Below, piece after piece: positions 55,492 to 56,813 of a stretch of DNA of 64,000 nt; positions within the stretch are counted from its first letter, which is position 1, and every line of letters starts with the position of its first letter. Both the position numbers and the translations under genes were made by a program. The DNA comes from Methanobrevibacter ruminantium M1. GTDB lineage: Archaea > Methanobacteriota > Methanobacteria > Methanobacteriales > Methanobacteriaceae. Location: NCBI RefSeq assembly GCF_000024185.1, contig NC_013790.1, positions 2,541,001 to 2,605,000 on the forward strand. The letters run 5' to 3'. Under the pieces are notes generated by a model. The model had not been told where the DNA came from and did not search any database. It saw only the letters and a list, made by a program, of their open reading frames with translations.

Positions 55492-55613
55492 ATTTGACCT
55501 CCATAAAAATTATCAATATAATTATTTTATAAAATAAATGATTTCTGAAATTTTATAAGAATTATACTTAAAAAAATCAATATTATCCTTTCACATTAAA
55601 ATATAAGTCAAAA

Positions 55614-55623
55614 GTATTATATT
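55614..55623 (-). promoter_or_regulatory. TATA box of the regulator gene
   Basis: On the minus strand AATATAATAC directly follows palindrome 1, placing the operator at the BRE position. Expected transcription start near 55590, with a leader of about 100 bases. Confidence 0.5.
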
Positions 55624-55635
55624 AACTTTTTGTTA
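55623..55635. promoter_or_regulatory. Operator palindrome 1, TAAC-N5-GTTA
   Basis: TAACTTTTTGTTA, next to the minus-strand TATA of the regulator. First of four related sites; a regulator bound here would block TBP/TFB at its own promoter. Confidence 0.65.
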
Positions 55636-55677
55636 CTAAAATTTAATACCATAATAATAAAACCCCATATAATAAAA

Positions 55678-55690
55678 TTACTTTTTGTAA
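55678..55690. promoter_or_regulatory. Operator palindrome 2, TTAC-N5-GTAA
   Basis: TTACTTTTTGTAA. The arms differ from the other sites by one compensating pair of changes (TAAC/GTTA to TTAC/GTAA) that keeps perfect symmetry. Starts 55 bp from site 1. Confidence 0.6.
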
Positions 55691-55696
55691 GAAAAA

Positions 55697-55715
55697 ACCG
55701 AAATGTTTATATAAC
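55697..55715 (+). promoter_or_regulatory. BRE/TATA promoter facing grpE
   Basis: ACCGAAA (BRE) then TTTATATAAC (TATA), a near-consensus archaeal promoter. Expected start near 55733-55738. Palindrome 3 overlaps the last bases of the TATA box. No gene starts within 300 bp downstream, so it drives either a long grpE leader or a separate small RNA. Confidence 0.65.
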
Positions 55716-55724
55716 ATTTTGTTA
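55712..55724. promoter_or_regulatory. Operator palindrome 3, TAAC-N5-GTTA
   Basis: TAACATTTTGTTA, overlapping the plus-strand TATA box. Occupancy should exclude TBP or block the polymerase, as in a classic archaeal repressor site. Confidence 0.65.
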
Positions 55725-55746
55725 CTAAAGTAAGTATAGAGAAAGA

Positions 55747-55759
55747 TAACTTTTTGTTA
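55747..55759. promoter_or_regulatory. Operator palindrome 4, TAAC-N5-GTTA
   Basis: TAACTTTTTGTTA, identical to site 1 and starting 35 bp after site 3, just downstream of the expected plus-strand start. Confidence 0.65.
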
Positions 55760-56120
55760 CTTTAATAAAATTGACAAAAATAAAATCTAAATCCTAAAGA
55801 GATTTCCCATAAATTGGCAAAAGCGACTTACCAACTACCTTTGCCGATTATGAGAAAATACAAACGTTATTGAAAGAAACCATAAAATTCTATAAGCTAA
55901 TAACATAGGATGTATCAAAGAATATTTCAATTCCTCTTTAAAATCACACTATATGATAGAAAATGAAAAACGAACGACATAAAATACTTCAAATTCTTTA
56001 ACCCAAAAAGAATAAAAATCAAATTTCTTTGGTAGAGTCAAATATTAAAGGAGCTAATTGATTTCTTTCTCTTTATACTTATAATTTTTAATTAATAAAA
56101 ACCGTCAAAAGGTGACTTAG

Positions 56121-56813
56121 ATGGCTAATAAAAAAGAAGAAGAAAAGGAAGAAGAATCTGAAGATGCTAAAAAAAGCACTAAAGATAAGATCAAGTCTAA
56201 AATTTCAAAATCTTCAGATGATTCCTCTAGTGACAATGAAGAATCCTCTAGCGATAAAGAGGAATCTTCTAAGGATGACGAAAAAGACAAGGAATTAGCT
56301 AAATTAAATGAAGACCTTGAAAAGAAAGATGAAGAAATAGGAGAACTTAAATCCCATATCCAACGTCTTCAAGCAGATTTCGACAATTTCAGAAAACAGA
56401 ACGACAAGCAAAAGCAAGACCTAATCCGCTTTGCAAACGAAGGTCTTATCGTAAAGTTCCTGGATGTCTATGAAGATATGGAAAGGGCTCTTGAAAATTC
56501 AAAGACTGAAGAAGAACTTAGAGAAGGTTTAGAATTAATTTATTCTAAGATGAAAGGCACTTTAGAAAAGGAAGGAGTCGAAGAAATCCCTGCAGTTGGA
56601 GAGAAATTCGATCCATTCAAGCACGAAGCATTGCTTACTGTTGACAGTCCAGATCATGAAAACAACGAAATCGTTGATGAGCTCATGAAAGGATACACTC
56701 TCAAGGGTAAAGTGATTAAATATTCTAAAGTAAGAGTTTGTAAAAAAGCAAAAAAAGCTGAAATAAATAAAGCTGAAGAAGCAAAAGATGATGAGGATAA
56801 AAAAGAAGAATAA
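56121..56813 (+). CDS. grpE: GrpE nucleotide exchange factor
   Basis: Releases ADP from DnaK. 230 residues: an N-terminal low-complexity region of about 75 residues (Lys/Glu/Asp/Ser), a long coiled coil (LAKLNEDLEKKDEEIGELKSHIQRLQADFDNFRKQNDKQ), then the beta-domain with EGVEEIPAVGEKFDPFKHEALLTV and GYTLKGKVIKYSKVRVCK. RBS AAGGTGACTTAG, the GGTGA type shared by dnaK and dnaJ. First gene of the grpE-dnaK-dnaJ series. The gaps between the genes (about 270 and 630 bp) suggest internal promoters. Confidence 0.95.
   Translation: MANKKEEEKEEESEDAKKSTKDKIKSKISKSSDDSSSDNEESSSDKEESSKDDEKDKELAKLNEDLEKKDEEIGELKSHIQRLQADFDNFRKQNDKQKQDLIRFANEGLIVKFLDVYEDMERALENSKTEEELREGLELIYSKMKGTLEKEGVEEIPAVGEKFDPFKHEALLTVDSPDHENNEIVDELMKGYTLKGKVIKYSKVRVCKKAKKAEINKAEEAKDDEDKKEE

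What the first reader, a model, noticed from the sequence alone, without database searches (positions are those of the whole stretch)
55492..56130. Four matching palindromes in the regulator-grpE spacer: a candidate archaeal chaperone regulon
Seen: four 13-bp palindromes (TAAC-N5-GTTA three times, TTAC-N5-GTAA once) at 55623, 55678, 55712 and 55747. Site 1 touches the TATA box facing the winged-helix regulator. Site 3 overlaps the TATA box of a near-consensus BRE/TATA promoter facing grpE-dnaK-dnaJ, and site 4 follows its start. Site 2 has a compensating change that keeps the symmetry, arguing for selection. Known: SurR of Pyrococcus, an ArsR-like regulator, binds a motif that includes AAC-N5-GTT, and Phr is an ArsR-like heat-shock repressor. 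Inference: this regulator represses itself and the Hsp70 genes. It lacks the SurR CxxC pair, so the signal would differ.
Basis: partly seen in the sequence, partly recalled or inferred. Interest (0 to 1): 0.72.

Follow-up and report, generated by a model that had tools for sequence, protein, structure and literature searches.

The report
Archaeal heat-shock switch on Hsp70 genes
Four copies of a short mirror-image DNA site lie between a relative of a known archaeal heat-shock regulator and the Hsp70 chaperone genes, and the same kind of site recurs at these genes in related methanogens and in a second archaeal phylum, so this regulator is predicted to keep the chaperone genes quiet until heat or protein damage releases it.

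Summary
The four palindromes are real and at the stated places. They are not chance: all 97 regulator-grpE spacers counted in the family hold TWAC-N5-GTWA (250 sites, 5.2 expected), and in 80 of them a TATA box begins exactly 6 bp before a site. Twelve of 12 spacers of two sister families carry the same pair. The regulator is not SurR-like: it groups with Phr of Pyrococcus, and the published operator of HSR1, placed in the same group, CTAAC-N5-GTTAG, has the same core. Phr-type genes of 25 of 25 Thermococcal loci carry the site before their own start. In a second phylum 16 of 16 grpE promoters carry it; in a contrast phylum 1 of 30. The window genome's cdc48 promoter also has one, kept in 14 of 14 closest cdc48 loci. 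Binding, repression and heat release are untested. No paper linking such a regulator to archaeal Hsp70 turned up in searches of an open-licence library.

The parts
54976..55491 (-). Regulator, 171 aa, Phr/HSR1-type winged-helix protein
   Evidence: Pfam HTH_5 E 4.7e-13; NCBIfam Phr_regulator E 1.1e-27, 96.8 bits, under its cut-off of 320; PDB 2p4w E 1e-23
55614..55622 (-). AT-rich ATATAATAC next to site 1, predicted TATA region of the regulator
   Evidence: sequence; same flank at the matching site in the congeners printed
55623..55635 (.). Palindrome 1, TAACTTTTTGTTA, predicted operator of the regulator gene
55678..55690 (.). Palindrome 2, TTACTTTTTGTAA, just upstream of the grpE BRE
55698..55713 (+). 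BRE-like CCGAAAT (55698-55704) and TATA box TTTATATA (55706-55713) facing grpE
55712..55724 (.). Palindrome 3, TAACATTTTGTTA, starts 6 bp after the start of the TATA box
   Evidence: offset of 6 shared by 80 of 97 spacers
55747..55759 (.). Palindrome 4, TAACTTTTTGTTA, past the predicted transcription start
   Evidence: 35-bp step from site 3, the commonest spacing
56121..56813 (+). grpE
   Evidence: Pfam GrpE E 8.5e-42
57083..58978 (+). dnaK (Hsp70)
   Evidence: TIGR02350 prok_dnaK 892 bits, over its cut-off
59600..60775 (+). dnaJ
   Evidence: TIGR02349 DnaJ_bact 451 bits, over its cut-off

Best explanation
The four palindromes are likely operators of the neighbouring Phr/HSR1-family regulator, which would hold down both its own promoter and the grpE (and probably dnaK-dnaJ) promoter until heat or protein damage is predicted to release it. 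Shown by sequence: the sites, their fixed place against the TATA box, their conservation together with the regulator, and their presence before cdc48 and, in relatives, hsp20. Inferred: a regulator dimer on each palindrome; the site over the TATA box blocking TBP/TFB; the site past the start blocking RNA polymerase; site 1 limiting the regulator's own synthesis. In several other genera the TATA box between the two genes reads as a box on both strands, so one operator probably serves both directions there. The arrangement looks like an archaeal Hsp20/Cdc48 heat-shock regulon that has taken in the bacterial-type Hsp70 genes.
For: 97 of 97 family spacers counted hold the site, 250 sites against 5.2 expected; density 7.02 per kb inside against 0.051 per kb outside; TATA box at a fixed 6-bp offset in 80 of 97; 12 of 12 spacers of two sister families; where regulator and grpE are apart (G126, G028) each promoter keeps its own site or sites; regulator kin to Phr by profile, sequence and fold; published HSR1 operator CTAAC-N5-GTTAG; site before the regulator gene in 25 of 25 Thermococcal loci and 10 of 17 other archaeal loci; site before grpE in 16 of 16 genomes of a second phylum; cdc48 site in 14 of 14 closest loci; hsp20 sites in seven loci.
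Against: No binding or expression data. The window genome's own hsp20 and two thermosome promoters have no exact site. G138 has the regulator but no grpE beside it and no site near its start. Seven of 17 non-Thermococcal archaeal loci lack the site before the regulator. The 13-bp core is not exclusive: one instance lies in a terminator-like hairpin (L154) and a TetR-like gene has palindromes with the same core (L349). The outer C and G of the HSR1 motif are not conserved in the family. Related loci are not independent events.
Confidence: 0.8

Rival explanations
1. The regulator binds these sites but activates, or does both, at some promoters: sites upstream of the BRE (site 2, the cdc48 site) would help TBP/TFB rather than block them.
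For: The cdc48 site and site 2 lie upstream of BRE/TATA, not over it.
Against: At grpE the most constant site overlaps the TATA box and a second lies past the predicted start, which suits blocking; Phr and HSR1 are described as repressors.
Confidence: 0.12
2. A different protein binds the palindromes, and the neighbouring regulator only happens to be encoded beside them.
For: No binding data; a TetR-like gene elsewhere has palindromes with the same core (L349).
Against: The site precedes the regulator gene itself in 25 of 25 Thermococcal loci, and the published HSR1 operator has the same core.
Confidence: 0.06
3. The sites answer to sulfur or redox state through a SurR-like protein.
For: SurR is also an ArsR-type archaeal regulator; weak NCBIfam match, 34.1 bits.
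Against: Phr profile scores 96.8 bits; one cysteine only; the targets found are chaperones and cdc48.
Confidence: 0.02
4. Chance repeats of an AT-rich spacer.
For: The count in the whole window (5) is near expectation (4.07).
Against: 250 sites against 5.2 expected over 97 spacers, and recurrence before grpE in loci of up to 61% G+C.
Confidence: 0.01

Closest known systems
HSR1 of Archaeoglobus fulgidus (AF1298; original paper Rohlin 2005 recalled, not read; described in passages of PMC9133787)
   Same: Autoregulator with a published operator CTAAC-N5-GTTAG, same core as here; operon with a small heat-shock protein gene; by PMC5852551 also linked to CDC48 and in the same group, arCOG01684.
   Different: No Hsp70 genes are named in its regulon in the passages seen; here a divergent promoter with up to four sites; the outer C and G are not conserved. 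I had no AF1298 sequence to compare.
Phr of Pyrococcus furiosus (PDB 2p4w)
   Same: Closest solved protein by sequence (E 1e-23) and by fold (Foldseek E 5.1e-10); represses hsp20 and VAT-type AAA ATPase genes with palindromic sites.
   Different: Under the curated cut-off for Phr proper (96.8 of 320 bits); Phr targets in the passages seen do not include DnaK.
SurR of Pyrococcus (PF0095 recalled as SurR; 2quf, 2qlz)
   Same: ArsR-type winged helix, weak similarity (E 2.5e-5).
   Different: No CxxC, 34.1 of 250 bits, different targets.
HrcA-CIRCE and HspR-DnaK systems of bacteria (recalled)
   Same: Works alike: a repressor tied to the dnaK genes that limits itself.
   Different: No HrcA match in the Pfam scan; different operator. 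No family membership is claimed.

Membership tests
Phr/HSR1 heat-shock regulators (arCOG01684 by PMC5852551) | ArsR-type winged helix with Phr as nearest solved relative | tested here: met
Phr/HSR1 heat-shock regulators (arCOG01684 by PMC5852551) | Operator core TAAC-N5-GTTA of the HSR1 motif | tested here: met
Phr/HSR1 heat-shock regulators (arCOG01684 by PMC5852551) | Outer C and G of CTAAC-N5-GTTAG | tested here: not met
   among 95 distinct contexts the base before is C in 2 and the base after is G in 14; so the operator is a variant
Phr/HSR1 heat-shock regulators (arCOG01684 by PMC5852551) | Operator at its own promoter | tested here: met
   sequence only:
Phr/HSR1 heat-shock regulators (arCOG01684 by PMC5852551) | hsp20 and cdc48 among the targets | tested here: inconclusive
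   cdc48 site present; own hsp20 has no exact site; hsp20 sites in seven relatives
Phr/HSR1 heat-shock regulators (arCOG01684 by PMC5852551) | Direct likeness to AF1298 or assignment to arCOG01684 | not tested
   no AF1298 sequence or arCOG profiles at hand
Phr/HSR1 heat-shock regulators (arCOG01684 by PMC5852551) | Binding and heat-released repression | not testable with these tools
   needs bench work
Phr proper (NF053602) | Curated score cut-off of 320 bits | tested here: not met
   96.8 bits; 0 of 151 phylum genomes reach it
SurR | CxxC redox switch | tested here: not met
   one cysteine in the translation
SurR | NCBIfam NF047699 cut-off 250 bits | tested here: not met
   34.1 bits
HrcA | HrcA domain | tested here: not met
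   Pfam scan at E up to 0.001 lists only HTH_5, PF0610-like_N, HTH_20 and PadR

The most novel reading that the evidence does not exclude
This is the missing regulator of archaeal Hsp70: an old archaeal repressor and its 13-bp operator took control of the bacterial-type grpE-dnaK-dnaJ genes in at least two archaeal phyla, in Methanobacteriales through a divergent promoter with one TATA box read both ways, and DnaK may feed back on it as it does on HspR in Streptomyces.
Probability: 0.35. Interest if true: 0.75.

Novelty: new variant of a known kind. Interest (0 to 1): 0.58.

Why it matters
In the papers seen here no regulator is named for the bacterial-type Hsp70 genes of archaea: a 2022 review says only Phr and HSR1 are identified as heat-shock regulators (passage), and a 2024 paper still speculates that archaea may use temperature-responsive elements for DnaK (passage). 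A named regulator, operator and fixed promoter geometry make the question directly testable. The same short site before phr-type genes, cdc48, hsp20 and grpE in several lineages also points to one old archaeal heat-shock operator that later took in genes of bacterial type.

Tried and rejected
Chance origin: rejected. SurR kinship: rejected. Symmetry of site 2 as proof of selection: set aside, because asymmetric sites are common.

Other targets in the window's genome: 100 of 102 motif places were listed; eight places besides the window's cluster were opened, so most were not looked at. 616116 is the cdc48 promoter. 17770 lies in a terminator-like hairpin; 1765523 lies inside an open frame; 661630 precedes a small FeS-assembly-type gene and 571275 an SRP54-type GTPase gene; 59359, 1744943 and the pair at 2696006 were opened but not pursued. 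Own hsp20 and both thermosomes: no exact site; one thermosome has a one-mismatch site just after its TATA box. In G140 (50 sites) and G148 (38 sites, list cut) eight stretches outside the grpE promoter were opened: most sites lie inside genes, one stretch looks like a CRISPR repeat array (L347), one precedes a TetR-like gene (L349), and one (L348) was not pursued.

Paired-site search: the printed list stopped at G060, so hsp20 counts are not complete. Of nine non-grpE pairs opened in one genus (g9), seven are hsp20 and two (L144, L145) were not explained.

The first structure model (13 sequences, pLDDT 57.8) was discarded; the second (28 sequences, pLDDT 76.4) was used. Rfam: no match in 54800-61400. 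A paper search for locus tags (MTH1288 recalled; others guessed) found nothing.

Full report
What was claimed and what is there. The four palindromes are present at 55623, 55678, 55712 and 55747. The window lies in a 2,937,203-base single-contig genome; the named close protein relatives of its regulator are Methanobrevibacter. That genome has 102 TWAC-N5-GTWA sites, about one per 29 kb, so four within 137 bp is a cluster, even though the window total (5) is close to expectation (4.07).

Published motif. A review passage (PMC9133787) gives the HSR1 operator of Archaeoglobus fulgidus as CTAAC-N5-GTTAG. A passage of PMC5852551 places Phr and HSR1 in one group, arCOG01684.

Conservation in the family. 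The regulator is found in 131 of 138 genomes of the family. I had 110 loci from that search (L001-L110; not all places it listed). Twelve had no grpE match in the stretch held (contig ends, or genomes where the genes lie apart) and one (L056) had grpE more than 1.2 kb away; these 13 were dropped before counting. All 97 remaining spacers, the window's own included, hold at least one site: 250 sites against 5.2 expected from dinucleotide shuffles. Density is 7.02 per kb inside the spacers and 0.051 per kb in the rest of the same loci. The commonest step between neighbouring sites is 35 bp (60 loci). These loci are related, so the counts are not independent events.

Sister families and splits. 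In two sister families, 12 of 12 spacers (L162-L173) carry the pair, as in TTTATATAACCTTTTGTAA with a second site 35-39 bp on. One genome, G148, has the length I recall for M. thermautotrophicus. In G126 and G028 regulator and grpE are separated, and each promoter keeps its own site or sites, which separates autoregulation from chaperone control. G138 (length recalled for Methanothermus fervidus) has the regulator but no grpE in the stretch held and no site near the regulator start.

Promoter anatomy. On the regulator strand many of the printed spacers outside the window's genus read TAGTAACAAAAAGTTA or TAGTTACAAAAGGTTA followed at once by TATAAA, with a start codon some 25-35 bp on, so the site that overlaps the grpE TATA box also directly precedes a TATA box for the regulator. 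In the window's genus a further site lies between the grpE BRE and the regulator TATA region. In the window itself these two flanks belong to two sites, 1 and 2, 55 bp apart, which suggests a duplication or insertion of that site (inference).

Wider conservation. A scan of named genome contigs confirmed 131 relatives and kept 80 loci. Of the 80, 38 are Methanobacteriota-type and were left out of the next count. In 25 of 25 Thermococcal loci (one of them titled Thermotogaceae) the 160 bp before the regulator hold the site (0.36 expected), often as CTAAC-N5-GTTAG; of the other 17 archaeal loci 10 do (0.24 expected). In 8 of those 17 cdc48 lies within the stretch held, once with hsp20. In the phylum of these genomes (several titles name Hydrothermarchaeota) 16 of 23 genomes have GrpE, and 16 of 16 grpE upstream regions hold one site (0.24 expected; a second, truncated GrpE copy, L302, and weak hits inside long frames were left out). 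In the first nine of these loci the regulator gene was not found within the roughly 1.5-kb flanks, apart from a weak winged-helix hit in L293. As a contrast, in the phylum of G153 (title: Thermoplasmatales) 173 of 194 genomes have GrpE; of the 30 loci fetched, one holds a site (0.12 expected). Whether those 30 genomes have the regulator was not tested.

Other targets. The window's genome has a site directly before a BRE/TATA-like stretch upstream of cdc48 (616116), some 670 bp before the cdc48 start. Of 30 cdc48 loci fetched, out of 129 genomes with a match, the 14 closest (own included) all have it, one of three more distant congeners does, and none of 13 other-genus loci has it in that place, though three of these have a site elsewhere and several have short upstream DNA. 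Seven loci of one other genus have sites around the hsp20 TATA box. The window genome's own hsp20 and thermosome promoters lack exact sites.

Mechanism. The likely scheme is a Phr/HSR1-type repressor dimer on each palindrome, blocking TBP/TFB at the TATA box and polymerase past the start, and limiting its own synthesis, with release under heat or protein damage. Placement and conservation are shown; binding, sign of regulation and signal are inferred from Phr and HSR1. That dnaK and dnaJ follow grpE's promoter is assumed; the gaps are 269 and 621 bp.

Novelty. Paper searches listed no paper that, from title, abstract start or passages seen, links a Phr/HSR1 regulator to archaeal grpE or dnaK. 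I saw passages of PMC9133787, PMC5852551, PMC10746257, PMC7772410 and PMC11549558 and only listings of the rest. The library holds open-licence papers only, so prior work elsewhere is possible; PMC10746257 mentions RegPrecise predictions of Phr targets in Pyrococcus. Regulator and operator are of a known kind; the new part is the Hsp70 genes in the regulon, their promoter geometry and the reach across two phyla.

Noticed in passing
window 56050-56072: A hairpin-plus-U-run element in the grpE leader. The motif GGAGC-N5-GCTCTCTTTCTCT (up to 2 mismatches) occurs in 14 of 19 genomes of the genus, once in 13 of them; RNAalifold on 13 leaders gives a hairpin there against crude column shuffles. The window copy has two changes in the 3' arm. 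It may be a second, RNA-level control such as an attenuator.
   Followed up: partly
window 55760-56120 and G000:C1:616128-616786: Long leaders: 361-416 nt after the last site in 13 grpE loci of the genus, and some 440-710 bp between site and start for cdc48 in the 14 closest loci. Reason unknown.
   Followed up: no
L349:1802-1850 (G148): Three TTAAC-N5-GTTAA palindromes at 18-bp steps before a TetR-like open frame: a different operator that shares the core, so the core alone does not identify the regulator.
   Followed up: no
L177:2365-2445 (G010): Three tandem 34-bp repeats each carrying TAACTAATAGTAA; they match the paired pattern by being a repeat, and are not at grpE.
   Followed up: no
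L217, L265, L271: Assemblies titled Thermotogaceae, Clostridium and DPANN hold archaeal Phr/HSR1-type regulators; in L217 and L265 this is probably mislabelled or mixed assembly.
   Followed up: no
window 56814-57082 and 58979-59599: Gaps of 269 bp (grpE-dnaK) and 621 bp (dnaK-dnaJ) with AT-rich stretches; a single transcript should not be assumed.
   Followed up: no
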